A stretch of 64,000 bases of DNA, taken from Arctopsyche grandis (taxonomy: Eukaryota > Arthropoda > Insecta > Trichoptera > Hydropsychidae). Position numbers and translations under genes: made by a program. The notes under the pieces were generated by a model that saw nothing but the letters and a program-made list of their open reading frames with translations, did no database searches and was not told where the DNA came from. Every line of letters starts with the position of its first letter. The stretch's first letter is position 1. Shown piece by piece: positions 60 to 54,238 of the stretch. Location of the stretch: assembly GCF_051622035.1 (NCBI RefSeq), contig NC_135360.1:6386001-6450000 (forward strand), in the 5' to 3' direction.

Positions 60-499
60 GAGAAAAAAAACCACCAATCAACCGACCAAATGTCATATTA
101 AAATACAACAACTATACATATGGTCGGAGTACATCGAATGGATGAAAATATAGATAACTATCGAGTATCCATCACATCTAAAAAATGGTGCTCATAATGC
201 TTGGCAACTTTATAGAAAAAATCCAGAAAATATTACTTGCAATTTAGAAGAAATATAGTACAACTGTACTTAAAAATTAACATAAATCCCGTAAAGGGGG
301 GGGAGGAAGACCAAAATCTTCAAAATAATTATCTAGCATGGTGCCTGTCAATATTCGATATGATCGCCTAGATCATTGGATGATTCTAGCTGATAAACAA
401 AATGGATTTGCACTTTGTAAAAAACATGCCACAAAATGTTGTGAAAAATGTGGTGTAAATTTGCATGAAGGATGTTTTAAAACCTTTCATTTTCGTTAA
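60..499 (+). pseudogene. piggyBac transposase relic (3' part)
   Basis: The 3' end of a piggyBac (DDE_Tnp_1_7 plus cysteine-rich tail) transposase, read across frame changes. Around 155-200 one frame reads RMDENIDNYRVSITSKKW, the segment that carries the third catalytic Asp in the family. A second frame near 198-235 reads NAWQLYRKNPENI. From 338 to the TAA at 497-499 an open stretch gives VNIRYDRLDHW and then CKKHATKCCEKCG and LHEGCFKTFH, the zinc-binding C-terminal pattern. Frameshifts and an internal stop show it is dead. The upstream half would lie outside the window. It is not the parent of the copy at 11003, whose cysteine tail differs. Confidence 0.75.
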
Positions 500-1879
500 T
501 TCATGTATATATATTATATTTACATAACTTGACTTATCTATGTACACTATTTTATAAGGTTGCTTGTGTTGAAATAAACTTTTTTTCTTAATTTAGTTTT
601 GTAGCGGCTACCTCACTGTATTCCCAGTGTTCCAAATTTGGAACATCTCGAAAAACTCGTATAAAACAAATACGAATGCAAGAAAAAAAGAAAAAAAAAT
701 GTTATGTATCATATAATACTATGATTTGTTGAAATTATTATAAATTTTGAGGAAAAAAAAATTCGGGCAAAAATGGGTTAAAACTAGCACAAATAAGCGC
801 TTGAATAAAAACCACAATTCATTGTTGTTTTAAAAGAGGTTCCACTGTCGATAATAAACTCAGTTGACTCCAATAGTGTGACCTCTCAGATTAGTGTTTT
901 TATTAGACTTTCAGAGATTGCCGCGTGCTACACCGTCTATACGGATCACAGTATTACCTCAAGTTCACAATATTGTCGGAGGATTTTGAACTTTCAATAT
1001 TGTCAATATACCTATGTTTTGCTTGTTTGAACCTTCAAAATGGACAGTAGAAGAAAAGCCACTGTAGCTATAATACTCGCATTGTATGTATCTATACAAA
1101 AAATAAGTCCTTAAAATGTATGGCCCAAGGCTTTTTAGTGGGATATTTTTTTATATATTTTATTTTATTTCATAGAACTTGAACACTCGCCTTCTCCAGA
1201 GCGACGAGTGCAATAAAATCAGTATACATAAGCATTTTATACAATGAGAATTCATACAAGCATCCACAGTGACATCTATGGAGAAATTTTTGCAGCATTT
1301 TATAATCAAATTGATTGAACCTCAAGACGCTGAATAACTTGAGATTATTAGTTAAAGAAATAGGAAAGCCAATTTTACAGTTATCATTTCTTTGTTTCCT
1401 ATATATGTACATACATAGGAAAGAGTATGAGTTTTACCCATATCTCTACCCTACTCCTTTTCTTTTGGGTATGCTAGGGTATAATTCCCTCAAACTTCAA
1501 AGAAACTTCTCATTAATTCTATTTGTTCTTCAGCTACTACGTGGTAATACGTCGTGCCTGTTGTTGCTGGAACAGTTGGGACTTTATGTCCCTGATAATT
1601 ATGTGCGTGGTAGTCATCATCATTTGATGGTTGTACCTCCTGCTCTCGCACAGTTCTTTTTCGAATGGCTCCTATTCCAAGAGCTATTCGACTTCTCAAT
1701 GAAATCGTTGCTGCTGAGCCTGAATGTTATATTTCCCACCTTGGTGAGCGTAAATTATCAGATTGGAAAAGTCGACGGTGACGCAAAGCTCTACCACATT
1801 CAGGAGCCCATAATTTAATTGTATGGTTGTCCGTACTTCTCTTTATTGTATTTGGAAACGGCAACAATCCTTCTCAACA
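500..1879. other. Upstream region of DHX15, no recognised gene
   Basis: AT-rich sequence with short ORFs only. The longest minus-strand frame near 1490-1699 and the plus frame at 1315-1818 overlap and match no family I recognise; a Harbinger-type C-terminus was considered for the minus frame but not supported. The first exon of DHX15 may lie here or before the window; I found no convincing start codon with the expected basic, Arg/Asp/Glu-rich N-terminus. Confidence 0.4.
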
Positions 1880-2491: not shown

Positions 2492-17006
<14,515 letters not shown>

Positions 17007-19269: not shown

Positions 19270-19689
19270 TCACGCATCAGAACTATCATCGTCGTTTTGC
19301 TGTTCTTCGGTATCCGCAAGGGTCTGTTCCTTCTTGAGCATGGTGAGAGCTCTGTGCGCACTGCCGTAAGATATCTTGGTCAGTGAACTGAGCTTCCGTA
19401 CTGAGAGGTTGGGTGTGTCGATAAGTCGCTGCCTCACCTCGTCCAGCGTCTGCTCGTCCAATATGGTGCTGGCTCTGACTCGTTTCCGGTCCAAGACAGA
19501 TCCGGTGCGACGAAAGCGAGTCACCGCTCGGTAAATGGTAGGCTTTTGGGGCGGGGAACAACCGGGAAAGCGTTCTCTGAACCTGGTGGCGCAAATTACG
19601 TAGGATCTGAACTTGAAGTACTCCTCGACCATAAACACGCGCTGCTCCAAGCTGAAGTGTGATTTCAGCTTTGTATCGTCGGAAACCAT
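19270..19689 (-). CDS. HTH-only protein, DUF4817-like (copy 1)
   Basis: Intronless gene of 139 residues. Residues 12-65 (FSLEQRVFMVEEYF to RRTGSVLD) look like the first helix-turn-helix of Tc1/mariner-type transposases and DUF4817 proteins. Residues 75-115 (LDEQTLDEVRQ, LSVRKLSSLTKISYGSAHRA) form a second HTH. No DDE catalytic domain follows; the protein ends in an acidic tail (EEQQNDDDSSDA). I place the start at 19689 rather than the ATG 18 bases upstream because copy 2 starts at the same point in the same context (CATCTGTCAAAATGGT). Role unknown; DNA binding is inferred from the fold only. Confidence 0.8.
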   Translation of the reverse strand: MVSDDTKLKSHFSLEQRVFMVEEYFKFRSYVICATRFRERFPGCSPPQKPTIYRAVTRFRRTGSVLDRKRVRASTILDEQTLDEVRQRLIDTPNLSVRKLSSLTKISYGSAHRALTMLKKEQTLADTEEQQNDDDSSDA

Positions 19690-19800
19690 TTTGACAGATG
19701 TGTGCATTCATCTGTCAAAGCACAGGAGCGCCAACTGTATCTGCAGTCGCAACGGTTCTATGACAAATCAACACCGGCATAATCAATACGTATCAACGTT

Positions 19801-19984
19801 AAGATTACTGGTCACAAAGTCACTAAAATCTCTATAACTGAACGTCTGGCAGCCGAAAAGTCCATCATACTAACGATAACTATCATAGTAACGAGAACTT
19901 GAGTGCCAAATATTGTGTATTCGCGATTTTCATGGCAAAAATTGTCTTTGTGACCACCCCAATGTGACGAATAGTCCAATTACC
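19801..19984. repeat. CGGTRATT hairpin MITE (a)
   Basis: Ends resemble GATTACTGGTCACAAAGTC and GACGAATAGTCCAATTACC. Almost the complement of the copy at 22485-22671 over its whole length (shared AATATTGTGTATTCGCGATT and TCATGGCAAAAATTGTCTTT). Lies just upstream of HTH copy 1. Confidence 0.65.
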
Positions 19985-20054
19985 TAAAATTACATATTGA
20001 AAATTGACATATTGGCTAACAGACAGTAGACAATTTAAATATACACATTTTCAA

Positions 20055-20370
20055 AAACATATAAATCCTCTCCAACACGCTTCCACTCGTCTCTGTTTTG
20101 TGCAACTCTCATCCATCTTACCCCACACATTTTCCTAATTTCATTAACCCATATTCCCTGCGGTCTCCCTTTCACCCTTTTGCATTCTCTAGAATACCAT
20201 TCTAGCACTTCTTTTGTCCATTCTTCTAGCCATGTGGCCCACCCATTTCCATTTCAATATCTTTACTCTGTCCACTACCCTTGTCATACTTCTCACCGAT
20301 GTATTCCGCTTCCTCTCTTTCCTCGTAATGCCGAGCATACAGCGTTCCATACTTCTTTGAATGCGTTGGA
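20055..20370 (-). mobile_element. LINE 3' fragment (RTE-like)
   Basis: On the minus strand it encodes pieces such as KWKWVGHMARR, the tail found after the reverse transcriptase of RTE-like LINEs. The same segment recurs at 48722-48845 and 50385-50640 (shared TCTCCGTTTTGTGCAACTCT and GTATACAGCGTTCCATA-like blocks). Confidence 0.65.
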
Positions 20371-20476
20371 ATTTGACATATATATATTAGAAGATTTTAC
20401 CTCGGCTATGCCGCATTTACACGAGCTCAATTATTATTAAGACATTCCACTAAGTCAAGCCAATATTAGTCTGATT

Positions 20477-20645
20477 CGGTGATTATTCCGCAAAAATCGA
20501 TCTCGTACAAGTCGGTAAAATCTCGATCGCGGAACATATGGAACCCAAAAACTCTATCAATCAAAAATTCAAGTACCAAATGTTCCGTGGTCGAGATTTT
20601 AGTGACTTGCGCGAGATCGCTTTTTGTGGAATTATCCGTTTACCA
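20477..20645. repeat. CGGTRATT hairpin MITE (b)
   Basis: Left end CGGTGATTATTCCGCAAAAA; right arm CGCTTTTTGTGGAATTATCC then GTTTACC. Inner arms TAAAATCTCGATCGCGGAAC and its near complement. Non-coding. Confidence 0.7.
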
Positions 20646-20695
20646 TCGATTAAAAAAGCTTTTCACATATTAATAAACAAATAAACATTGAGAAG

Positions 20696-20911
20696 CATAG
20701 AAGTAGAATGCATAGAATCGCTCTCAGCCTCCAAAAATTATGCTACAAAAACTCTGCGCGGCATAGTTTGTTCATTGTTTGCTCATAGTTTGCTAAACTT
20801 CGTCTCTCTCTCTCTCTTGTCTCTCTTCTGACTTTCCGTCTCTCTCTTCGATGGCTCGCTTTAGACGATACTTTTGTTAACAATGACCATTCTATGCATT
20901 CTATTTCTATG
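20696..20911. mobile_element. hAT-type MITE
   Basis: TIRs CATAGAAGTAGAATGCATAG and, inverted, CTATGCATTCTATTTCTATG. Exact 8-bp target duplication TTGAGAAG at 20688-20695 and 20912-20919. Contains a (CT)n-rich stretch. A second copy is at 54864-55190. Confidence 0.88.
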
Positions 20912-21449
20912 TTGAGAAGATTAAAAATATATTTTTTACGCCTGAATATCATAACCCACAAATGGCGGGAAAATTTAAATAGATTGTACAGTGTATATAT
21001 ATTATCGCATACAACAATTTCGATATGTATAAAGCTTACTTGTATTAATTTTTATGAATCCATTTTGTATGTATCATTATTTTTAATGTTGATCTGTCTG
21101 GTTTCTGCAGTGGTTAGCCATTATTTGTAAACAGGACAATTGTACACTCGGATTAAAATAATATTTTATCATCATATGACAATAGGTTAATATATTTCTG
21201 TCAGCTAATAATGGAACCAGAACACCATGGTAGGCACAAATGATACTCCGTAATGTAATAGGGTTTTTATTTTTTAACCAAGATTTAAGTGACCAACGAC
21301 CTAGAAAGCATGGACCCCAACTTTAACGTTTTTCCTAATTACTGTCTTGTGAAAGAAATGTGGAGAGAGAGAGAGACTGACAGCAGTGAACGATGATACA
21401 GTTGGTGCACCTGCACCTTTGACAGTTCTCGGCGGGTCCATCTGTCAAA

Positions 21450-21902
21450 ATGGTATCTTCGAAGATGAAGCCTTCGAGCCGATTCACACTGGAGCAGCGC
21501 GTTTTCATGGTTGAAGAATATTTCAAATTCCGATCTTATTCAGTTTGCATGACCAGATTCAAAGATCGCTTTCCAAACTGCTCTCCACCACACAAACCCA
21601 CGATCTATCGAGCTGTGGAGCGATTTAGAAGGACGGGGTCCGTTTTGGACATGAAGCGATCTGGAGCACCCACAGTTTTAGATCAGGAAACATTAGATGA
21701 AGTTAGACAGCTGCTGGTAGACAAGCCTGATCTGTCGGTGCGGAAACTCAGCTCGCTGGTGAAACTATCGTGTAGCACAGCCCACAAGGCTTTAACCATA
21801 GTCCGAAAGGAATTGAACGACCCTGTTGATAGTGAACAAGTAGATCCGAGAAAGCTGCTGCCGCTTTGTGACGTAAATTACGCCAGAAATGGCGAGCAAT
21901 GA
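21450..21902 (+). CDS. HTH-only protein, DUF4817-like (copy 2)
   Basis: Intronless, 150 residues, start ATG in the same context as copy 1 (CATCTGTCAAAATGGT). First HTH: FTLEQRVFMVEEYFKFRSY to FRRTGSVLD; a short SGAPTVLDQETLDEVRQ linker; second HTH: LSVRKLSSLVKLSCSTAHKA. After residue 115 the tail is short (VDSEQVDPRKLLPLCDVNY) with no sign of the DDE domain. A polyadenylation signal AATAAA lies at 22108-22113, about 200 bases downstream, as expected for a small expressed gene. Roughly 65-70 percent similar to copies 1 and 3 in the HTH part. Alternative reading: the retained N-terminus of a dead transposase. Confidence 0.83.
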   Translation: MVSSKMKPSSRFTLEQRVFMVEEYFKFRSYSVCMTRFKDRFPNCSPPHKPTIYRAVERFRRTGSVLDMKRSGAPTVLDQETLDEVRQLLVDKPDLSVRKLSSLVKLSCSTAHKALTIVRKELNDPVDSEQVDPRKLLPLCDVNYARNGEQ

Positions 21903-22107
21903 GCGAGTCGACTCTTGGATTCATTATTGAAATTAACAATCGAATGAAGGCGAATCATTGTAGCATCTATTTGCACTGGTTGTGACGAATTGAGAGCTCC
22001 CTTTCTTTCAAGGCAATGTTACCTTCAGAACTGGACGGAAAAGATATCGAAATTTTGATACCTTGTTTTTATTATGTTAGTCTTTTTGAATGTTGTGTAA
22101 AAATGTA

Positions 22108-22113
22108 AATAAA
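22108..22113 (+). terminator. Polyadenylation signal of HTH copy 2
   Basis: AATAAA followed by T- and GT-rich sequence, 206 bases after the stop codon. Confidence 0.5.
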
Positions 22114-22484
22114 ACAGTTGAATATTATGTAAAATATTTGTGTCTAATTTATTCATCACTTTCAATGTTTAATTTTTTAACACATTATAATATGTTTAAA
22201 AAAAGAAACTGGTTGTAATTTTTTAAATATCAGTTATAGTATTATATAAAAAAATATATATCTTGACAAACTTAACTGAAAAAACTGTCAATGTTTTGGC
22301 AATTTTATGAATAAAATAGCAAGCTGGCATTTTTCATTGATTACGTTTTTTTCCTATTTCATATCAAGTTTCTGGATGTTGTGAAAGTAATGTTGGATTT
22401 TATTTGCAATTCAAAACCAGTGTTCAATTTAGAAACACCGTATTCGGTCTAGTAACGTGTAGAATTTGAATGTTCCATAAAAAA

Positions 22485-22671
22485 CGGTAATTGGACTATT
22501 CGTCACATTGGGGTGGTCACAAAGACAATTTTTGCCATGAAAATCGCGAATACACAATATTTGGCACTCAAGTTCTCGTTACTATGATAGTAATCGTTAG
22601 TATGATGGACTTTTCGGCTGCCAGATGTTCCGTTATAGAGATTTTAGTGACTTTGTGACCAGTAATCACCG
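22485..22671. repeat. CGGTRATT hairpin MITE (c)
   Basis: Left CGGTAATTGGACTATTCGTC, right GACTTTGTGACCAGTAATCA then CCG. Inverted relative to the copy at 19801-19984, so the two flank HTH copy 2 and the hAT MITE. Confidence 0.7.
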
Positions 22672-23480
22672 AACCCCATAAAACATAAGCTTTTTTCTCA
22701 AAATGTACACCATTACATTTAATACATCATATATAATATCGCTATTCTGTCTGTGTATCTGAGATAACGTTGCGTACTATAATGGTCGTTTAGATTCGAA
22801 ATATATATGTATGTCACAGCTAAAACACGATATAGTGGCCAACAAAACGTATACGAATATAATAACAAAAGAAAAAAACTTCTATACATACTGTTTGCTA
22901 CCAATGTTTCCTCCAGACAAATAGACGGCGCCTGTCTTCAACATTCTCTAAGCGTTTACCGCCATCTATTGAAAATTTATTTAATTAATTAATATATGTA
23001 GGTACGTAATTTTTACCATTTTTAAAAGGTATTTGAAAAAAGTTCGACCGGATGCCGATCAAACACAATACCGACATATTACTTTTTTTTTATTTAATAA
23101 CTTAATATGCCAACATTCGTGCGATGATAAGTCATCGGGTACAACACTAGCACATATATCATAATTAGCGGAATCATTCATAATAATAATTTAAGAGTTG
23201 AAAAAATACGGCTTTCCACTTTTTTATTTTGTTTGTGGTTTTGGATTTCCTAATCTTTCTGACCAACAAGATAAAGAGTCACTAGACAAAATCGCTTCAC
23301 TGAGTTGTCATAATTATATGCGTTCTGTAATTCAAACCATCGTAGCGAGTTTTATTTGCCTTACGTGTGCCGAAGGCTCTCCCTCGTCAAATTGTCGTGG
23401 TGAGGGACAATTTGTCTCGTGAAAGAAATGTGGAGAGAGAAACTGGGTAAACGGATTATTCCGCAAAAAGCGGTCTCGCC

Positions 23481-23656
23481 AATGGTCGTTGATTATTCCA
23501 CAAAAAGAGATCACTAAAATCTCGATCACGGAACATCTGGCACTCGAGTTCTCGTTAGTACAATATTTCGCGTGGATTAATGGAGTTTTTGGGTGCCAGA
23601 TGTTCCGTGATAGAGATTTTAATGATCTCTTTTTGTGGAATAATCACCGACCATTG
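23481..23656. repeat. CGGTRATT hairpin MITE (d), long stem
   Basis: Arms of about 55 bp: AATGGTCGTTGATTATTCCA, CAAAAAGAGATCACTAAAAT, CTCGATCACGGAACAT on the left and the near-exact complement at 23600-23656. Ends about 80 bases before the start codon of HTH copy 3, so it forms that gene's proximal upstream region. Confidence 0.75.
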
Positions 23657-23739
23657 GCGAGATGTGTACTAGTGATACTGTTGGCACAACTGCGACATTG
23701 ACAGCTAGCACCAATGACAGTGACACTTTAGCAGAAACT

Positions 23740-24108
23740 ATGGCATCGGGGCAGTCGCAATTTCGCTATTTCACTCTAGAGCAGCGAGTTTTTATGGTCG
23801 AGGAATACTTCAAATACAGATCTTACACCATTTGTAGCACTCGGTTTAAAGAGCAGTTTCCGGACGTTTCCCCGCCTCACAAACTCACCATCTATCGAGC
23901 CGTGTTGCGCTTCAAGCGAACCGGTTCTGTTCTCGACACCAAGAAGAAGAGAACACGCACCGTTCTCGATCAGGAGACGATGGATGAAGTAAGGCAGTTG
24001 CTCGTTGAAAAGCCAGACCTCTCCGTGTCGAAGCTCAGCAGCATGATTAAAATATCGTGCGGCTCCGCACATACGGCCCTTACCGAGATCAGAAAAGAAA
24101 TGAAGTAG
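23740..24108 (+). CDS. HTH-only protein, DUF4817-like (copy 3)
   Basis: Intronless, 122 residues from the ATG at 23740; an upstream ATG at 23662 adds 26 residues not shared by the other copies. First HTH: FTLEQRVFMVEEYFKYRSY to FKRTGSVLD. Second HTH: LSVSKLSSMIKISCGSAHTA. It stops soon after the second HTH (LTEIRKEMK) with no catalytic domain. A polyadenylation signal lies far downstream at 24693. A hairpin MITE ends at 23656, so its promoter may include transposon sequence. Function unknown; DNA binding inferred. Confidence 0.8.
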   Translation: MASGQSQFRYFTLEQRVFMVEEYFKYRSYTICSTRFKEQFPDVSPPHKLTIYRAVLRFKRTGSVLDTKKKRTRTVLDQETMDEVRQLLVEKPDLSVSKLSSMIKISCGSAHTALTEIRKEMK

Positions 24109-25441
24109 GAAATGAACCGACAGCCCGAAACTAAAAGTTCGGCAGCGTGAAAGCATCGCTTGATCGAATCTGAATCATCATGATTAGTGACAAATGGTCT
24201 CGAAGCCGCACTCTGGATTGAGTTGACATGAGCTGTTGATTGGACCGATTACTATGGAAATATAAATAATATGAAAATCGTATTGAACTACGTATAAGTC
24301 TTACAATGTGCGATTCGAACTTCAGATTTGGGTCATTGAATGGACATATTATTTGTCGGAGGTGTGCTATGGAAACTGAAGTAAATAGCAGATAGCATCT
24401 ATATGTCGAATGGATAATTTTATAATATGAGAATTGCTATTATTAATGTTAGATAGATAGCTAAAATTTTTAATAAGGTTACATCGTCAAACTGTTTCAA
24501 TCGACTTCTAAGATCAGAGGTTACAATGATAATAAATGTTTATACGTATTCTATTGTACCGAATGTTTATTGTACTCAAATGATGGAAAATTTCTGCATT
24601 ATTTTTGTTACTTATGGGATAACTTTTTGTACATGAACTATATATAAAATGTTACAGCTATGCATTCCTTGTAAATTTATGTATTGATTTCAAATAAATA
24701 AGAAAAAACAAAAAAATGTTTTAATGCCATTTCAATTATAAATTAAAAGACTACACATATTGGTTCTCGTTTTCTCGACTCAGAAATTTAGATTTTTCGT
24801 CGGCTTGAACAGGAGTTTGTATATATATGTATGTGTACAAAAAACATGTATGTAATATCTTAAATATGCGAGAAATCTTGTGATCATTCATGGATTTTTA
24901 AGCTATTAACACACCTTAAAAATATTTTAAAAAACGTTTGAAAATTAATTCTCACCATATTTTATTAATAGTTAATGTTTACCTAGTAAAGAATTTCACT
25001 GCGTAAAACATTTTTGCATTTTTATCCCTAATACAAAGCAGACAAGAAATTTCGAAATTCCGAATTTCGCACTGATCATTTAGTAGACAAAATTTGAACC
25101 TCAATTCTTATTTGTGATTTTAAAATACCTATGTAATTCCAGCTGGTTCAGAACTTTTATCAATAATTATCATTACTTAGTTACATATACTATATGAATA
25201 CTTTTCTATCATTTATTTTAATAAATTGTAGACCTTTTATAAAAGCTTTTATTTAGTTTGTTACATGGATTTTCCTGAATGCATAAGCCTCCATTTATGA
25301 GTATTTTTTTATTGTGAAGCCTGCATATATTATATGTATTTATTAATTCTTTCAATGCTGAACAACGCTGATCGGCGTTTTGGCTTTCAACAGAAATGAC
25401 TTCAGTACTCACAGGATTAAGGATTCGATTAGTCGAAATAC
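24109..25441. other. Downstream region of HTH copy 3
   Basis: AT-rich; AATAAA at 24693-24698 could end the copy-3 transcript. No other gene, RNA or element recognised. Confidence 0.4.
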
Positions 25442-25870
25442 CAGTGGCGTCACTAGGGGGTGGTTGTCAACTAAAAAATATTCTGTAATAATTATTAATA
25501 TTTGCCAATTGTTATAACTTACGAGAAGCGCCTAAAACGAAGTTAAGTTCACACGTTGTTTCTGGATTGCGTCTCCATCTGACTGAAACAGTTAACCTTC
25601 TTACCTTTAGATACATACACTGATTTCTCAGGAATCCGAACAAAAGCCAATTATAGCTTATATTTGATGCTATATTCAGCTGCACCAGACGGATTTCGCG
25701 GTAGCTGTATAAATACAGAAAGCTGTATATATACAGACATTGCAATGAGGCTTGTAGCCGCTCGAGAACTGTCATACAAGGAATATGTCGAATTAGCGTT
25801 TTTCAATTTGAACAATTTGGTGTCACCCGGTGCAGACTGCATTCCTAGCACAGGTCTAACGACGCTACTG
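25442..25870. mobile_element. Non-autonomous hAT element
   Basis: Ends CAGTGGCGTCACTAG and, inverted, CAGTAGCGTCGTTAG. GAAATAC occurs directly on both sides (25435-25441 and 25871-25877), one base short of the usual 8. Small ORFs inside do not resemble a transposase. Confidence 0.72.
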
Positions 25871-26230
25871 GAAATACAATTTTTTTAAATGTCCAGCAAA
25901 CTTGTCTTGAAGAAAGTTTTTGATTCCAGTGATTTATTATTGCCTTCTGGGATGGAAAGAATGGATTATAATTTTGATGGGTAGGTTCTATTTTTGACGG
26001 TGCCAATTTTGTACATATTAACTAGCCTAAAACAGAAAGAAGCGCATATATATTTATTAGCAGTTATATAATACAAAGCTTACTTATGATAGATTGCCTT
26101 AAATTTAAATATTGTTCAATTGTTTTTGTTTTGTTTTTTTTTTTAATTTGCATTTTATGAAATTGAAATGTTTTAAAAGAATGACGACTAGATTCATAGT
26201 TGTCGATTTATTTAGATAGAAATGTCGACA

Positions 26231-26428
26231 TTAGACGCTCCCAGTTTTGCGAAAGCGGCTGATGATGCGATCGATGGCGGTTTTGCTGGGCGGTTTGGTC
26301 TCGGGGAATGTCTCGCTGAATTTGGTGCGACAGAGATCGTGCGACTTCAGCCTGAAGAACTCCTCGACGATGAAGATGCGCTGCTCGAGGGTGAGGTCGA
26401 TCTTCGCTTCGGCGTTCTCAGCAGCCAT
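26231..26428 (-). pseudogene. HTH-only protein, DUF4817-like (copy 4, truncated)
   Basis: Codes for the first HTH only: LTLEQRIFIVEEFFRLKSH to FRKTGSV, then a stop where the other copies continue LD. At 65 residues it lacks the second HTH. It is the most diverged copy, and the region is GC-richer than its surroundings. Either a dead copy or a one-HTH micro-protein; the first is more likely. Confidence 0.65.
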
Positions 26429-34335: not shown

Positions 34336-35702
34336 TGTTTTAATTATATAGACTGTCTAAAAATTTCATTGATCAGTAGTTAATATAACATAATTTGTCA
34401 TTAGTAAATTCTTTTAATTTTGAATTTAAAGCTTATCTTTGGGTGATCCAAGGTTTTAAGCAATATTCATTTAATTACATTAATTTAAGCCGGGATTATA
34501 ATTTTGATTGAAATCTTAATCATACTAAATAATATTTTTTTTAAGTTTATATTTTATATTTTAGTACATTTTTTAAATTTTCTTTTTATTTTATTTTATA
34601 TATACATATGTATACTATATACTTTTTTATAATTTTTTTTTATTTTTTATATTTTAGTTAATAAAAATAATTGAAAATTTTCTACCTTTCTTTTTTCAAC
34701 AAAACATTAAATTATATATTTTTTGATCGAAAATTTTTATTTTCGTTTAGCAAAATTAAAAAAATAGTTACATGAAATCTGTGGCTGAGTTGTCTCCGTG
34801 ATGAAATGTACTAGAATCTTCAGAATAATATATCATGATTCATGACATACATATACATTCTTATCAACATTTTGATCGTTATCTAAAGAGAACATTTGTC
34901 ATTTGTAAAGTGGAAGTCCAACTAAGCGAGTGTTTAAAATGAGTTAAGTAAATCAATTATTATACTAATAGACTTTCCATTGTCAATTTTATTTATAACC
35001 CTGCAGAACTGCAATTGGCAATAGCTTTCCGAAACAATGGAAGTGAAATACGAGCAAGTTTTCATTAACACGTTCCAAGATGAACGATTTAAAACTCAGA
35101 AGAAAATATTCATCAAGTGGATCAATCTAAATCTGAAAACGGTGAACGTGAGTTGTTCGATAATAATAATTGTTCAATTTCAACGACACATAGTTAAAAA
35201 TCAGTAATGGAATTATTTTTTTTTGTTTCAAGACATGTATGGCCGTGAACGACTTGTTCTAGGATTTGGCCGATGGGCGTATACTTTTGAAATTGCTAGA
35301 AATCGTAACTGGCAAAAAGCTGCCGAAACCTAGCCATGGAAATATGAGAGTGCATAAAATCGAAAATGTCAATAAAAGCATCTTATTCTTGCGCACTCAG
35401 GTATCCTTAAGATTAATTACAATCAGGCTATAGCTTATCAATTGCTTTTAACCTCGTCATTTCTATGCATATACATATGTACATATGTAGTATATCTTTA
35501 TCATTTTTACATTTCATTCCATTTGATTAAAATCAAACAAAAATATAGAAGAGCCTTGTAAAAATTAATGAAACAAATGCATGTTGAAAAATTTAAAATA
35601 AAACGTATTGTTAAGACCAAAATTTGAAATTTTATACACGGAATTGCATTATTGACAACCATGAATGATCAATCGATTATTTTTTACAAGAATGCATTAG
35701 TT

Positions 35703-35892
35703 AGGTGATTATTCCGCAAAAGGCGATCTCGCGCACGTCATTAAAATCTCGATCACGGTACATCTGGCACCCAAAAACTCAATCAATCACGCGAAATATT
35801 GTACTAACGAGAACTCGAGTGCCAGATATTCCGTATTCGCGATTTTTGTGGTAACGATTGCGATCGCAATTTGCGGAATAGTCCGTTTACCG
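35703..35892. repeat. CGGTRATT hairpin MITE (e)
   Basis: Left GGTGATTATTCCGCAAAAGG, right GCGGAATAGTCCGTTTACC. Shares ATCTCGATCACGG, CATCTGGCACCC and GAACTCGAGTGCCAGAT with the copies at 23481 and 22485. In intron 2 of copy B. Confidence 0.7.
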
Positions 35893-42242: not shown

Positions 42243-43535
42243 TTATATCTTGAAAGCATTAGCATTATCCTTCAAAAAGTGGATGATCCTTTTATGCAGT
42301 TGACCAGCACGGATTTGATCTCCCAAATCGTTGTAAGCATGGTATAAATTCAATAGGATAATGACAGTTTTATAATTCTTCATTCCATAGCATTCTTCAT
42401 ACGAAGGTAAAATAGTCTCCAGCAAATTCTTGGCAGCATCGTACTGATTCAATTGACTTTCAACTTTGGCCAAATTGAACTGCGCACATAAATACAGAGG
42501 ATGATTAGTGTCATATACCTTTTCATACATTTTGAGAACCATGTTAAGCAACTCCTTAGCTTTAGTATGGTTACCCAAACCGCTTTCAGCAATGCTCAAA
42601 TTGAGTAAAACCCTAGCCATTTTAGTGTGCGATAGTCCATAATGTTGCTCATATATCGGTAAAACATCGTCTAAATGTTCCTTAGCTTTTTGATAATCAC
42701 CCAAGTCACATTCGACTTTACTCATGTTGAGCAGAACTCCAGCAGTTTTATAATTCAGTTTCCCATAATGATTTTCATATACTGGAAGAATGGTGTTTAA
42801 TATACATTTAGCCTCCCGGAAATTGATCAAATCGCGTTTCATAGTCATTCTACTACCATCCATTATGTCTTTAGGTATATCTAACTTATCCATGCCGCTG
42901 GTACATGCATTTAAAATTTTAGCAACTGATATTTTCGCCGCTTCGCAAATCCCCAGATCGCTTGTAATTATACTCAAATGCAACTGAGGAAGAGCTGACT
43001 CTATATGATCAGGTCCGTTAAACTCCTCATATACAGACACCACTTCTTGTATTATTGCTTTTGCTTTGCTGTGATGACCCAAATCGTTCTCCACGTAGCT
43101 CAAACTTAGCAAAACTTTAGCCGTGTGTATGCTTTCAGGTCCGTGTACCTTCTTGCACACACTCAAAACATTTTCAAGAAGGTCTCTGCTCGTTTTATAA
43201 TTGCCAAGATCTTTTTCAACGTTGCTCAAGTTACTCATAGCATTGATGGTCTTCAAATCCTCTTCTCCATAACATTGTCGACAAGTCGATGTGAGTTCTT
43301 CAAGCAGGACCTTGGCTTGTTGAAAATTTTGCAGTTTTCGTTCCACATTGATCAAATTCGATATGGCATTTACCGTTTCGGCGTGTGTTATACCATAATG
43401 CTTCTTATAAAACTGCAAGGCATTGACGAAATGTGTCTTAGCCACTGGATATTTTCCAGCTTTAAATTCTTTCAAACCAGACGCCATCAGTGCTGCTGCT
43501 TTTCCAACACTGTTTACTTCGTTGGAATCGGACAT
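42243..43535 (-). CDS. Intronless tetratricopeptide-repeat protein, 430 aa
   Basis: Single open frame starting MSDSNEVNSVGKAAALMASG. From about residue 20 it is a solenoid of roughly nine TPRs with a 42-residue period, of the kinesin-light-chain/nephrocystin-3 (TPR_12) type: for example NAMSNLSNVEKDLGNYKTSR, VLLNMSKVECDLGDYQKAKE, HLDDVLPIYEQHYG. No motor-binding coiled coil, kinase or signal peptide, so not a true kinesin light chain. A linker LDIPKDIMDG in mid-protein is shared with the 830-residue paralogue at 51441. Probably a cytosolic scaffold; function unknown. Lack of introns in a family with repeats this regular suggests retroposition or gain from a compact source, but codon and base use do not stand out from the surroundings. 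AATAAA-equivalent at 42091-42096. Confidence 0.88.
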   Translation of the reverse strand: MSDSNEVNSVGKAAALMASGLKEFKAGKYPVAKTHFVNALQFYKKHYGITHAETVNAISNLINVERKLQNFQQAKVLLEELTSTCRQCYGEEDLKTINAMSNLSNVEKDLGNYKTSRDLLENVLSVCKKVHGPESIHTAKVLLSLSYVENDLGHHSKAKAIIQEVVSVYEEFNGPDHIESALPQLHLSIITSDLGICEAAKISVAKILNACTSGMDKLDIPKDIMDGSRMTMKRDLINFREAKCILNTILPVYENHYGKLNYKTAGVLLNMSKVECDLGDYQKAKEHLDDVLPIYEQHYGLSHTKMARVLLNLSIAESGLGNHTKAKELLNMVLKMYEKVYDTNHPLYLCAQFNLAKVESQLNQYDAAKNLLETILPSYEECYGMKNYKTVIILLNLYHAYNDLGDQIRAGQLHKRIIHFLKDNANAFKI

Positions 43536-43654
43536 TATTTAGAATTTAACTAAATAACCAATCTAATCGAATTTACAATGCGCTCTGAAATACAAAAATA
43601 TTTTTTATCAATAAATTCCATTTATGTATAGATTTTTATTTATTTTATACATAT

Positions 43655-44368: not shown

Positions 44369-44869
44369 TATATTTAATGTACATAATGTATATATTTGAT
44401 GTATAGATTTTCATTCAATTGTCAAATGATTAAATATACCTACATATACAACAGACTTATCAATGGAAGTGATATTAAGATCTAGTGAAACGTATGCTAC
44501 ATTTACTTACACGTGGAATGTTTTGAATCTTGGGAATACAAATAAAAAATACGTCTTAATGTGAAACGTAAAGGAGGTTTGTAAAAACAGACACGTTCTC
44601 ACTAATGATTGGCGAAAAACTATCGAATTTCATAAATATGTTTATGATAAATTATTAGATCAGTCAACTCTATCTAATCAAATAACGTGTGTATGAATGT
44701 TATCTTCTATAATCTAATCTATAATTTGGAAAGAGACTTTGTATGTAAATATCCTTGGTCGTCGTCGTCGTCCGTAGATCGGTGACGTCATCGAACACGT
44801 GATTCGATTTTTTTTTTTTTTCGATCCATGGGCGCCGATTTGTTTTATTCGTTTCGCGAGTAGCTTCAT

Positions 44870-45895
44870 GGGGCCCCGCCAGGGGCGCCACATGGGGCGC
44901 AGCCCCGTGGGGCCCCGAAGGGGGCCTGGAGGGCGCAGCCTCATGGGGCGCAGCCCCATGGGGCTCAAAAGGGGGCGCAGCTTTATGGGGCACAGCCTTA
45001 TCGGCCGCAGCCTTATGGGGCGCAACCTTATGGGGCGCAGCCTTATGGGGCGCTGTCTTATGGGGCGCAGCCTTAGGGGCGCAGCCTTATGGGGCGCCGC
45101 CTTATGGGGCGCCGCCTTATGGGGCGCCGCCTTATGGGGCGCCGCCTTATGGGGCGCCGCCTTATGGAGCTTAGCCACATGGGGCCCCGAAGGGGGCGCA
45201 AGGGGGCACAGCCTCATGGGGCGCAGCCCCATGGGGCCCCAAAGGGGGCGCAGCCTCATGGGGCGTAGCCCCATGGGGCCCCGAAGGGGGCGCAGGGGGG
45301 CGGAGCCTCATGGGGCCCCGAAGGGGGCGCAGGGGGGCGCAGCCTCATGGGGCGTAGCCTTATGGGGCGCTGTCTTATGGGGCGCAGTCTTATGGGGCGC
45401 CGCCTTATGGAGCTTAGCCGCATGCGGCCCCGAAGGGGGCGCAGCCTCATGGGGCCCCGAAGGGGGTGCAGCCTCATTGGGCCCCAAAGGGGGCGCAGGG
45501 GGGCGCAGCCTCATGGGGCGCCGCCTTATGGGGCGCTGCCTTATGGGGCGCTGCCTTATGGGGCGCCGCCTTATGGGGCGCAGCCTTATGGGGCGCTGTC
45601 TTATGGGGCGCCGCCTTATGGGGCGCAGCCTTATGGGGCGCTGTCTTATGGGGCGCAGCCTTATGGGGCGCCGCCATATGGGGCGCCGCCTTATGGGGCG
45701 CTGCCTTATGGGGCGCCGCCTTATGGGGCGCCGCCTTATGGGGCGCCGCCTTATGGGGCGCCGCCTAATGGAGCTTAGCCGCATGGGGCACCGAAGGGGG
45801 CGCAAGGGGGCGCAGCCCCATGGGGCCCCGAAGGGGGCGCAGCCTCATGGGGCGAAGCCCCATGGGGCGCAGCCTTATGAGGCGAAGCCCTAAAC
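44870..45895. repeat. 15-bp minisatellite array, very GC-rich
   Basis: Tandem units CTTATGGGGCGCAGC with variants (GCCGC, GCTGT) and longer interspersed GGCCCCGAAGGGGGCGCA blocks. Because the unit is five codons, both strands stay open in several frames (MGRSL repeats one way, GAAPH repeats the other); these are not genes. GC content contrasts sharply with the AT-rich window. Confidence 0.93.
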
Positions 45896-46590
45896 GGCAA
45901 CTGATCATGGGGGCGAAGCCCTTGACGGCATTTAATCATGGGGGCGCGGAGGGGCGAAGCCCTAATAGGCATTAACTAAGGGGGGCGAAGCCCTAGGCGG
46001 CATTTAATCATGAGGGTGATGAGGGGCGAAGCCCCAAAAGGCATTAATTATGGGGGGCGAAGCCCTAAACGGCATTTAATAATGGGGGCGCGGAGGGGCG
46101 AAGCCCTAAAAGGCATTAACTAAGGGGGGCGAAGCCCTAAACGGCATTTAATAATGGGGGCGCGGTGGGGCGAAGCCCTAAAAGGCAACTGATCGTGGGG
46201 GCGAAGCCCTAGACGACATTCAATCATGGGGGCGCGGAGGGGCGAAGCTCTAAAAGGCATTTACTAAGGGGGGCGAAGCCCTAGACGGCATTTAATCATG
46301 GGGGCGCGGAGGGGCGAAGCCCTAAAAGGCATAAACTAAGGGGGGGCGAAGCCCTAAACGGCAATTAATCTTGGGGGCGCGGGGGGCGAAGCCCTAAATG
46401 CATTAAATAAGGGGGGCGAAGCCCTAGACGGCATTTAATCATGGGGGCGCGGAGGGGCGAAGCCCTAAAAGGCAACTGATCATGGGGGCGAAGCCGTAAA
46501 CGGCAATTGCTCATGGGGACGTGGAGGGGCGAAGCCCTAGAAGGCAAAGGCTCAGGGGGGCACCGAGGGCGAAGCCCTAGAAGGCAAAAA
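45896..46590. repeat. Second minisatellite, about 65-70-bp unit
   Basis: Repeats of GGGGCGAAGCCCTAAAAGGC, ATTAACTAAGGGGGGCGAAG, CCCTAAACGGCATTTAATCA, TGGGGGCGCGGA. GGGGCGAAGCCC alone recurs about every 30 bases. It resembles GAGCGAAGCCGGG at the Helitron right end, from which it may have grown. Confidence 0.88.
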
Positions 46591-51440: not shown

Positions 51441-53933
51441 TTAAAGCAAATTATTATTATCCCTTATTTCCTGTGAAAAAAATTTCAACCTTTTACCAAA
51501 ACGGTTTTTATCTTCCGAATCTTCGCAAGATACTACTATATGCAATAGAATGATTCCAATTTTTAAATGCTTCACTCCATAACATTTTTCATACAAGGGT
51601 AAGATTTTTTCTAGCAAAGTTTTAGCATCTTTACGATTATTCATTTTGTTTTCGATTTTAGCCAGATTAAACTCAGCGGTGATATATAGAGGATGATTAG
51701 GTGCAACATTAATACTATTGTATGATTTGAAAACACGATCAAGATAATCCTTCGCTTTAGCGTAGTTGCCCATGCTGCTTTCAGCGATACTCATATTGAG
51801 GTACACTCCAGTGGTTTCCGTGTGCTCAGTTCCGTAACGATGCTCGAATATCGGCAAGATCTTGTCCAAATACTCCATAGCTTTTGTATAATTACCCAAG
51901 GATACTTCCACGTTACTCATGCTGAGCAGGACGCCAGCTGTTTTATGGTGATCGGGTCCGAAATACTCTTTATAAGCGGCTAAAACTCTCTCCAACAGAC
52001 ATTTAACCTCCTGGAAATTGGTCAAACCGTGATTGATACCATCATCTATTATATCCTTGGGTATATCTAAGCTGTCTGAGTTGCCGTTGTTGTTAGATAT
52101 TTTCAAAACTTTTGCTTTTGCTCTTTCGTAGATCCCTATTTCACTTTTGACGTTGCTTAAATTCAACCGAATGCGAGCTGTTTCGAAATGATCGGGTCCG
52201 TAATGTTCCTCAAATATAGAGATGACTTTCTCGAGGCTTTCTTTGTCATACTCCCCCAAGTCGTTCTTAACATTGCTCAAATTGACCATGACTTCGGCCG
52301 TCTCAATGCTACTCGGCCCATATTGTGTTTTGTATTTAGTCAAGACATTTTCGAGATGTTCTCGACTCGATGTATAGTTACCTAGATCTTTTTCAATGTT
52401 GCTCAAATTAAGCCAAGCACTTGCACATCTCAGGTCCATTTTATAATTTTTATATATTTCCATCGCTTCAGTAACCAATTTCTTTGCTTCGAGATAGTTT
52501 TCATTTTCGATTTCGATGTTGGACATGTTCATTTTAACGTCGGCTTTGAGCACAGGAGTCAAATCACATTTGGCGAGGATCTGATTGAGATGAATTTTCG
52601 AGAGAGGGTAATTGTGCAAACCTTTTTCTACTGCACTCAAATTCAACAGGATATTAGCCAATTCAACAGATGCAGTACCATATTTTTTCTCATACGTGGG
52701 TTTGATTTCTGTGAGCAAGGTTTTGGCTTCCCTGTATTTGCCTAGATTTATCTGCACCCTGCTCATCAAAAACATTATCTCAGACGTATCGATGTCTGAT
52801 TTCTGGGTTCTGTATATAGGTATGACTTTGTTGAGCAATTCCTCTGCTTTGTTATAGTTTTTCAAAGACTTTTCGCACATGATTAGATCCAGCAGAACGT
52901 TGGTTGTGTTTATATTCCCATGTTTATAGCACACTTCGTACACTTGCAATACACGTTCGAGTAATTTCTTCGACTGTTTCACATGGTTTAATTTCATTTC
53001 GACTTTGCTCAAGTTGAACAAAATATGTGCTGTGTTTATATGTTCGGGTCCGTACAGATTTTCAAACACATTTTGTACCTTCTCGAGCGATTTCTTCGCA
53101 TTTTCGTATCTTTTCATCCTGACTTCGATATCACTCAAATTTATTAAAAGGCCAACGGATCTATAGTTGTCTTCACCATATTTTTTATTATATATTTTTA
53201 AAGCATCTAAAACATGTTTCTCTGCTGTAGAAAATTCACCTAGGATTTTAGTGACGGTACTTAAATTTAGTAAAACATTGGCAGTTTCAATTTCGTCACA
53301 TTTGTTATCATTCGTAAATACAGAGTAAGCGTTTGTGAGCGAAACCTTAGATTTTTTATATTCTGCCATATCCCTCTGAAGGATGCCTAGATTGAATAAA
53401 GCATAACCATATCTTATATCCTTGTTTCCACAAATGTGCTGATACGTGTTAACGACTTCATCGAGATGCTTCTCGGCTTGCGATTTATTCGCGACACTCT
53501 CGATGTGGCTCAGGTTCACCAGAACACGAGCAACTTCCAGACTTTTCCGATTGTACGTTTTCTCGCATATCTGTAGACACTTTTCGGCCCACTTCTTGGC
53601 TTCACTGCGATTGACCAGCACCTGTTCGACGTCGCTCAAGTCGAGCATCGCATCGACAGATTTCACGTCCTGGTCTCCATGAACTGATACGAGCTCTCCG
53701 AGTAAGACTTTGACTTCCTTGAAATTTTGCAGTTTTCGTTCGACGTCGATGAGCTTCTTTAGAACGGCGACCGTTTCATCGTGTTTTAAGCCGTGATGAT
53801 TCCTGTAGAACTGTAAGACGCTACCGAAAATGATTTTAGCCACCGGATATTTCCCGACTTCGTATTCCGTCACACCGGACGCTATCATAGTTTTGGCTTT
53901 CTCCACACTGTCCACTTTGTTCAAATCGGACAT
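51441..53933 (-). CDS. Intronless tetratricopeptide-repeat protein, 830 aa
   Basis: Single frame; I start at 53933 (MSDLNKVDSVEKAKTMIASG) because this aligns with the start of the 430-residue paralogue. An upstream in-frame ATG at 53975 would add 14 residues, and a TTTCAG just before it could be a 5' UTR splice acceptor. About 18-19 TPRs of some 42 residues fill the protein: VLLNLSTVTKILGEFSTAEK, ILFNLSKVEMKLNHVKQSKK, AWLNLSNIEKDLGNYTSSRE, VLLSMSNVEVSLGNYTKAME. First three and last four repeats, and the linker LDIPKDIIDDG, match the paralogue; the extra repeats are internal. No enzyme domain, membrane segment or signal peptide. Likely a protein-binding solenoid of unknown partner. Confidence 0.9.
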   Translation of the reverse strand: MSDLNKVDSVEKAKTMIASGVTEYEVGKYPVAKIIFGSVLQFYRNHHGLKHDETVAVLKKLIDVERKLQNFKEVKVLLGELVSVHGDQDVKSVDAMLDLSDVEQVLVNRSEAKKWAEKCLQICEKTYNRKSLEVARVLVNLSHIESVANKSQAEKHLDEVVNTYQHICGNKDIRYGYALFNLGILQRDMAEYKKSKVSLTNAYSVFTNDNKCDEIETANVLLNLSTVTKILGEFSTAEKHVLDALKIYNKKYGEDNYRSVGLLINLSDIEVRMKRYENAKKSLEKVQNVFENLYGPEHINTAHILFNLSKVEMKLNHVKQSKKLLERVLQVYEVCYKHGNINTTNVLLDLIMCEKSLKNYNKAEELLNKVIPIYRTQKSDIDTSEIMFLMSRVQINLGKYREAKTLLTEIKPTYEKKYGTASVELANILLNLSAVEKGLHNYPLSKIHLNQILAKCDLTPVLKADVKMNMSNIEIENENYLEAKKLVTEAMEIYKNYKMDLRCASAWLNLSNIEKDLGNYTSSREHLENVLTKYKTQYGPSSIETAEVMVNLSNVKNDLGEYDKESLEKVISIFEEHYGPDHFETARIRLNLSNVKSEIGIYERAKAKVLKISNNNGNSDSLDIPKDIIDDGINHGLTNFQEVKCLLERVLAAYKEYFGPDHHKTAGVLLSMSNVEVSLGNYTKAMEYLDKILPIFEHRYGTEHTETTGVYLNMSIAESSMGNYAKAKDYLDRVFKSYNSINVAPNHPLYITAEFNLAKIENKMNNRKDAKTLLEKILPLYEKCYGVKHLKIGIILLHIVVSCEDSEDKNRFGKRLKFFSQEIRDNNNLL

Positions 53934-54238
53934 CTTTGCAGAATTAAAGTCAACGTCTCGTGTGAGCTGAAACACAAAAACATTTTCACATTAGTAATGC
54001 ATTCTTGTCAAATTTGAACACATTTTTTGTACAGTTGAATGATTATAAACACATATCAGTGGCGTAGCTACCGCGCCCGCAGACCCCGCAATGCGGGGGG
54101 GGGGGGCGCCGAGACCTGGGGGGTGCCACGAAGCGCGCCTTTTTCACTGATTTTTTAATTTGTTTCGTAATTTTTTTGAAATAACTTTTTTAAAAACTTC
54201 TCTTATTTTTCAACCTATTTGTACTATATGTGTATGTA

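What the first reader, a model, noticed from the sequence alone, without database searches (positions are those of the whole stretch)
19270..26428. Cluster of stand-alone helix-turn-helix genes without a transposase catalytic domain
Four copies of a short intronless gene lie within about 7 kb on both strands. Each encodes the two HTH units typical of DUF4817/Tc1-mariner N-termini and stops right after them. Copies 1-3 keep full frames despite roughly 30 percent protein divergence, which is not expected for drifting fragments. Copies 1 and 2 share the start context CATCTGTCAAAATGGT and an upstream GATACAGTTGGYGC block, so the duplicated unit included a promoter region. They could be domesticated DNA-binding proteins, possibly repressors that compete for transposon ends.
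Basis: partly seen in the sequence, partly recalled or inferred. Interest (0 to 1): 0.72.

Follow-up and report, generated by a model that had tools for sequence, protein, structure and literature searches.

The report
Cluster of transposase-derived DNA-binding genes
Four neighbouring genes in what looks like an insect genome encode only the DNA-gripping part of a jumping-gene enzyme, showed no close copies elsewhere in that genome, and have kept their reading frames over long divergence, so they look like a former transposon part turned into host genes whose target is still unknown.

Summary
Four DUF4817 frames lie at 19270-26428; c1-c3 carry two helix-turn-helix (HTH) units, c4 only the first. 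Silent sites of c1-c3 are near saturation, yet omega is 0.084 and neutrality is rejected by 77 log-likelihood units. A 31-bp block 52-66 bp before the ATG is kept in c1-c3. A whole-genome search (475.7 Mb) with c2 found relatives outside the cluster at only 28-34% identity and no full-length transposase among them. The one dispersed DUF4817 transposon family seen is frame-broken, with one fragment resembling a transposase catalytic domain. The model resembles Pax and Mos1/SETMAR DNA-binding regions. Conclusion: an old, local host gene family made from a Tc1/mariner-type DNA-binding domain, probably sequence-specific regulators. Competition for transposon ends is not supported: no matching transposon was found. 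Elsewhere the domain sits beside a ZAD exon and beside Kelch frames, suggesting repeated capture. Transcription, orthologues and targets were not testable. Present-day constraint on c3 and c4 is not shown.

The parts
19270..19689 (-). c1, stand-alone two-HTH gene, 139 aa (in-frame upstream ATG at 19707)
21450..21902 (+). c2, stand-alone two-HTH gene, 150 aa
23740..24108 (+). c3, stand-alone two-HTH gene, 122 aa
26231..26428 (-). c4, 65-aa frame with the first HTH only; AATAAA begins 19 nt after the stop
19712..19741 (-). shared upstream block of c1 (GATACAGTTGGCGC..TTTGACAG)
21395..21425 (+). shared upstream block of c2
23674..23704 (+). shared upstream block of c3 (2 mismatches in the 14-base core)
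19690..19719 (-). inverted repeat TTTGACAGATG / CATCTGTCAAA directly before the ATG of c1
21418..21449 (+). inverted repeat TTTGACAG / CTGTCAAA directly before the ATG of c2

Best explanation
A local, old family of host genes made from the DNA-binding half of a Tc1/mariner-type transposase. SHOWN: each full copy (c1-c3) encodes two HTH units and no other domain that Pfam recognises; the copies are far diverged at silent sites yet constrained at the protein level; they share a conserved upstream block; a whole-genome search with c2 found close relatives nowhere else. INFERRED: an ancestral transposase DNA-binding domain lost its catalytic part, became a gene with its own promoter, and was copied locally with that promoter; the products bind DNA in a bipartite, paired-domain-like way and act as small sequence-specific regulators (repression by occupancy being simplest, since no activation or enzyme domain is seen). 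The first recognition helix is nearly the same in c1-c3 and the second has diverged, so I infer a shared half-site with copy-specific second half-sites.
Confidence: 0.75

Rival explanations
1. Transposon-end repressors: HTH-only proteins that occupy the ends of a Tc1/mariner transposon and block its transposase, as the short KP and 66-kDa proteins do for the P element.
For: A bare transposase DNA-binding domain could do this by competition; the P-element 66-kDa protein keeps the DNA-binding domain and represses, and KP is a short repressor (PMC7776569, passages seen).
Against: No transposon with a closely related N-terminus was found: c2 hits outside the cluster are 28-34% identical. The dispersed DUF4817 transposon family (L017, L018, L020-L022) is frame-broken and not among c2's hits at E <= 0.001. 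An extinct target, or one only in other populations, remains possible.
Confidence: 0.12
2. Fossils: separate Tc1/mariner insertions cut off after the HTH part, now drifting.
For: The domain is of transposase type; c4 is shorter; c3's own branch is compatible with recent neutrality; the neighbourhood is rich in repeats.
Against: Neutrality over the whole tree rejected by 77 log units; frames intact at near-saturated silent divergence; c1-c3 all end soon after HTH2; no paired inverted repeats above shuffled level around c1, c3 or c4 within 1.5 kb (ungapped test, 10 shuffles each), and those around c2 are MITE copies; no dispersed close copies; DUF4817 transposon copies here look different: on five contigs, four of them 87-94% alike over their longest joint stretches, broken, one with a fragment like a transposase catalytic domain.
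Confidence: 0.05
3. A self-regulating cluster (compatible with the best explanation): the conserved upstream block and the TTTGACAG/CTGTCAAA inverted repeat are operators bound by the cluster's own proteins.
For: The block is kept although silent sites are close to randomised; two convergent arms sit 22-24 bp apart directly before the ATG in c1 and c2.
Against: The repeat is not kept as an inverted pair in c3, and c4 lacks the block; CTGTCAA is the target sequence used for the homeodomain protein TGIF in Bombyx (PMC3494694, passage seen); TGACAG in either orientation also lies 65 bp or less before the ATG in L005 and L007, so it may be a general promoter element; no binding data.
Confidence: 0.2
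4. Formerly a functional family, with c3 and/or c4 now decaying (compatible with the best explanation).
For: c3's own branch is compatible with omega 1; c4 lacks the second HTH.
Against: c3's frame is complete; c4 has the best DUF4817 score of the four (45.2 bits), a GC3 of 0.80 and an AATAAA shortly after its stop.
Confidence: 0.2

Closest known systems
DNA-binding region of Tc1/mariner transposases (Mos1; Hsmar1/SETMAR)
   Same: Two trihelical HTH units in tandem; Mos1 and SETMAR entries among the top nine structural matches, spanning both units; Pfam DUF4817 and, weakly, HTH_32
   Different: No catalytic domain, no terminal repeats found, not dispersed; the linker lacks the GRPR-type motif that L005 keeps (read from the sequences; that this motif is typical is recalled)
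Pax / paired domain
   Different: 11-14% identity; no homeodomain or other effector region; DUF4817 is the sequence family
P-element KP and 66-kDa repressors
   Same: Products without a complete catalytic part that act as repressors; the 66-kDa protein keeps the DNA-binding domain (PMC7776569 passages)
   Different: Those are products of the transposon itself and of a different superfamily (THAP domain); here the genes sit alone and no matching transposon was found
[quoted passage not shown]
   Same: Transposase DNA-binding domain retained under purifying selection, lineage-specific expansions (PMC10027918 passages)
   Different: The passages I saw name these six superfamilies; DUF4817/mariner-type is not among them

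Membership tests
Tc1/mariner-type DNA-binding domain | First HTH of DUF4817 type | tested here: met
   4 of 4 above the Pfam cut-off
Tc1/mariner-type DNA-binding domain | Second HTH following in tandem | tested here: met
   c1-c3: HTH_32 at E 8.3e-5, 1.4e-7, 3.3e-4 (all under the curated cut-off) and a second trihelical unit in the model of c2; c4 has none
Tc1/mariner-type DNA-binding domain | Fold of a bipartite paired-like domain | tested here: inconclusive
Tc1/mariner transposon (mobile element) | DDE/D catalytic domain | tested here: not met
   None in the four frames nor, at E <= 0.01, in the other 55 of 59 frames of 50 aa or more around them
Tc1/mariner transposon (mobile element) | Terminal inverted repeats around the gene | tested here: not met
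   Within 1.5 kb no ungapped pair above shuffled level for c1, c3, c4; for c2 only MITE copies
Tc1/mariner transposon (mobile element) | Dispersed close copies | tested here: not met
   Query c2: all matches above 34% identity lie in the cluster
Domesticated transposase gene | Purifying selection on the protein | tested here: met
   c1-c3: omega 0.084, neutrality rejected over the tree; single branches c1 and c2 reject omega 1, c3 does not
Domesticated transposase gene | Same locus kept in related species | not testable with these tools
   states that this genome has no relatives here
Domesticated transposase gene | Expression | not testable with these tools
   No read data
KP-like transposon repressor | A transposon with ends that the protein can bind | tested here: inconclusive
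   No transposon with a closely related N-terminus found; binding untested

The most novel reading that the evidence does not exclude
In this lineage the DUF4817 half of a Tc1/mariner transposase was captured several times as a host DNA-binding module: as a stand-alone, locally duplicated and co-regulated HTH-only family (c1-c4), next to a zinc-finger-associated (ZAD) domain (L005), and next to Kelch repeats (L016), while the transposons of that type died. This would be an arthropod counterpart to the transposase capture described for vertebrate transcription factors (Cosby et al. 2021, recalled; cited in a passage of PMC10027918).
Probability: 0.35. Interest if true: 0.7.

Novelty: new member of a known kind. 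Interest (0 to 1): 0.52.

Why it matters
Pax proteins are thought to descend from a transposase DNA-binding domain of this shape (recalled). A small, locally duplicated family that is still only the bare domain, in one genome with dead transposons of the same Pfam type, would give a stage at which to ask how such a domain gains its own promoter and target before any effector domain is added. The conserved upstream block and the divergent second recognition helix make direct binding tests possible.

Tried and rejected
Composite element: c2 lies between two 98% identical inverted 182-bp copies (19803-19984, 22486-22667). They are members of a palindromic MITE family (also 20475-20644, 23474-23662, 35701-35892); the copy after c2 has CCATAAAA near both of its ends (22475 and 22676), as for an insertion of its own, so I rejected a composite transposon carrying c2. 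For the copy at 19803-19984 I saw no such pair of flanks.

A conserved 5' UTR hairpin: c1 and c2 fold into two adjacent stems (z -2.66 and -1.98), but c3 and c4 do not (z 0.69 and 0.45), so I do not claim it for the family.

Codon trees by IQ-TREE: the report lines searched for omega were not found, and in the four-gene tree the c4 branch ran to its bound (10.0), so I used my own three-gene model, on the 122 codons without gaps in c1-c3. The pairwise counts include the poorly alignable tails.

Viral or bacterial relatives: none confirmed in viral contigs, genome contigs or phages. PDB by sequence: only chance matches. Plain Foldseek against the PDB and a second AlphaFold job (c4) never ran.

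Catalytic remnant in broken transposon copies: four fragments (from L018, L020, L021, L022) gave no Pfam match at E <= 0.1; by phmmer one (L020) matched Sleeping Beauty transposase at E 0.0013 and one (L022) gave only a chance hit; the other two were not searched against the PDB.

Promoter motif in print: a search for TTTGACAG, CTGTCAAA and TGACAGCTGTCA gave 2,961 papers, and the 30 listed showed nothing pertinent by title. Literature on this family: searches for DUF4817 (4 papers, one mention each, not opened) and for domesticated mariner-type or HTH-only genes listed no paper that by title or abstract start describes stand-alone DUF4817 genes; most of those papers were not opened.
Full report
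What is there. The window is C6:6386001-6450000 of a 475.7-Mb assembly of 189 contigs; I take it to be an insect from its transposons, its ZAD-type gene and its gene style (inference; no call names the organism). Four short frames lie in 7.2 kb: c1 (-) 19270-19689, c2 (+) 21450-21902, c3 (+) 23740-24108, c4 (-) 26231-26428. All four match Pfam DUF4817 above cut-off; c1-c3 also match a second HTH (HTH_32) below its cut-off; nothing else is above a cut-off. c4 ends at the end of the first HTH. No further copy is in the window apart from one chance-level hit.

Selection. Between c1, c2 and c3 silent sites are near saturation (pS 0.73-0.89; fourfold sites 11 of 40, 15 of 35 and 10 of 36 identical, that is 28, 43 and 28%, against 25-27% expected by chance), while pN is 0.21-0.24. 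A three-gene codon model that I wrote (GY94 type, F3x4, 122 codons) gives omega 0.084 with lnL -1109.5; neutrality gives -1186.8. Forcing a single branch to omega 1 costs 3.60 (c1), 3.43 (c2) and only 0.31 (c3) log units. A neutral tail of 0.1 substitutions per site costs 1.7 (c1) and 2.7 (c2) and is favoured by 0.7 for c3; a tail of 0.2 costs 6.3, 8.6 and 1.4. So long constraint is shown for the family, and c1 and c2 cannot have drifted for long; recent constraint on c3 is not shown. c4 was compared pairwise only: pN 0.34-0.37, pS 0.74-0.80, and its fourfold sites agree with c1 in 8 of 13, with c2 in 3 of 14 and with c3 in 3 of 15. Caveat: with dS this high, omega is good to an order of magnitude.

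Upstream block. Starting 52-66 bp before the ATG, c1, c2 and c3 share a 31-column block, 26, 23 and 24 of 31 identical pairwise and 21 of 31 in all three. Local alignment scores of the 100 bp upstream are reached by 0, 3 and 0 of 2000 base shuffles, those of the 100 bp downstream by 104, 137 and 951. c4's upstream shows no such similarity (to c1, c2, c3: 975, 365 and 1794 of 2000). At up to two mismatches the 14-base core occurs only at these three places in the window, none of them downstream of one of the genes, so it is not a terminal repeat; at three mismatches the total (6) is at chance level. TGACAG in either orientation occurs 30 times in the window, 8 of them in the four 100-bp upstream stretches; 0 of 200,000 random sets of four stretches reached 8 (the stretches of c1-c3 are homologous, so these are not independent counts). 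TTGACAG/CTGTCAA occurs 11 times, 5 of them here. CTGTCAA is the TGIF target used in a Bombyx reporter (PMC3494694, passage). The hexamer also lies 65 bp or less before the ATG of L005 and L007 (ATG positions read), so it may be a general promoter element of this genome.

Genome-wide. c2 against the whole genome gives 7 matches at E <= 0.001 with all 11 candidates scored: the four cluster copies and three remote ones at 34, 31 and 28% identity (L005, L006, L007). The 'stop inside' that one search lists for c3 and c4 is each frame's own stop, which the alignment runs over. PF16087 gives 13 places with all 59 candidates scored: 4 in the cluster, 3 others covering at least 50 of 55 positions (L010 = L007, L011 = L006, L016), and 6 partial (L017-L022); it did not list L005, which is just above the cut-off (23.1 bits), so weak members can be missed. 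Five of the six partial ones (L017, L018, L020, L021, L022) are related DNA on five contigs: L017, L018, L020 and L022 are 87-94% alike over their longest joint stretches (428-945 bp) and L021 is more distant. No frame over 170 aa occurs in these 3.1-kb loci, so I call them frame-broken; they bear frames that read like a Tc1/mariner catalytic part (by eye). One such fragment matches Sleeping Beauty transposase at E 0.0013, another found nothing, and Pfam found nothing in four. L019 shares only other repeats with them. These copies are what transposons with this domain look like here: dispersed, similar, broken. The cluster differs on each count.

Capture elsewhere. In L005 a zf-AD frame (PF07776, 31.4 bits, cut-off 28) is followed by a GTAAGT donor and, before base 1408, an AG acceptor in the same phase, leading into a frame with both HTH units that ends at 1857 and keeps SGRPR in the linker. 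In L016 a frame with DUF4817 alone (37.3 bits) precedes four frames with Kelch motifs on the same strand, each above Kelch_1's cut-off. Both are gene models from sequence only. L007 has a 200-aa frame and L006 a 156-aa frame with DUF4817; neither has a catalytic frame of 90 aa or more within about 1.4 kb as far as I read the translations.

Reading. The simplest account is a Tc1/mariner-type DNA-binding domain that became a host gene long ago and was copied locally with its upstream sequence. The products should bind DNA in two half-sites; with no effector domain seen, action by occupancy or through a partner is likeliest. Competition for transposon ends lacks a target in this genome at the sensitivity used. 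What remains untested: transcription, orthology, binding, and genome-wide relatives of c4 and of the upstream block as separate queries (not completed).

Literature. Seen in passages: PMC10027918, PMC3494694, PMC7776569. Seen only as listings with abstract starts: the other papers returned, among them PMC9710019 on co-domesticated PIF/Harbinger proteins in insects. Cosby et al. 2021 (not read) and the transposase origin of Pax are recalled.

Noticed in passing
L005 (G000:C9 about 5255420), 841-1857: Probable fusion gene: ZAD (zf-AD) exon that can be spliced in frame to a two-HTH DUF4817-type domain ending right after the second HTH; an opposite-strand DDE_Tnp_4 transposase frame lies next to it at 2048-2803.
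   Followed up: partly
L016 (G000:C8 about 24860088), 237-1725 (-): Frame with a single DUF4817 HTH directly upstream of four Kelch-motif frames on the same strand; possible HTH-Kelch gene.
   Followed up: partly
window 42243-43538 (-) and 51441-53990 (-): Two long open frames of tetratricopeptide repeats that look alike (431 and 849 aa; Pfam TPR_12/TPR_10, NCBIfam FxSxx_TPR below cut-off); origin unclear, a bacterial source was not tested.
   Followed up: partly
window 11390-13133 (+): piggyBac-like transposase (Pfam DDE_Tnp_1_7) in two overlapping frames, lying between stretches that I read by eye as parts of a DHX15-like helicase gene (5.4-17 kb; Pfam gave nothing at E <= 0.01 for the two frames sent).
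   Followed up: no
window 19803-19984, 20475-20644, 22486-22667, 23474-23662, 35701-35892: Palindromic MITE family with ends like GGTRA...TNATCACC; of the five copies seen (17.5-28 kb compared with the window; aligned) four lie among the HTH genes.
   Followed up: partly
window 44700-45900: GC-rich stretch (55% in 44-46 kb) of short repeats open in several frames on both strands; a similar-looking repeat is in L022.
   Followed up: no
window 19286-19711 (-): A second 141-aa frame overlaps c1 in another phase, starting at an ATG within the inverted repeat; probably chance.
   Followed up: no
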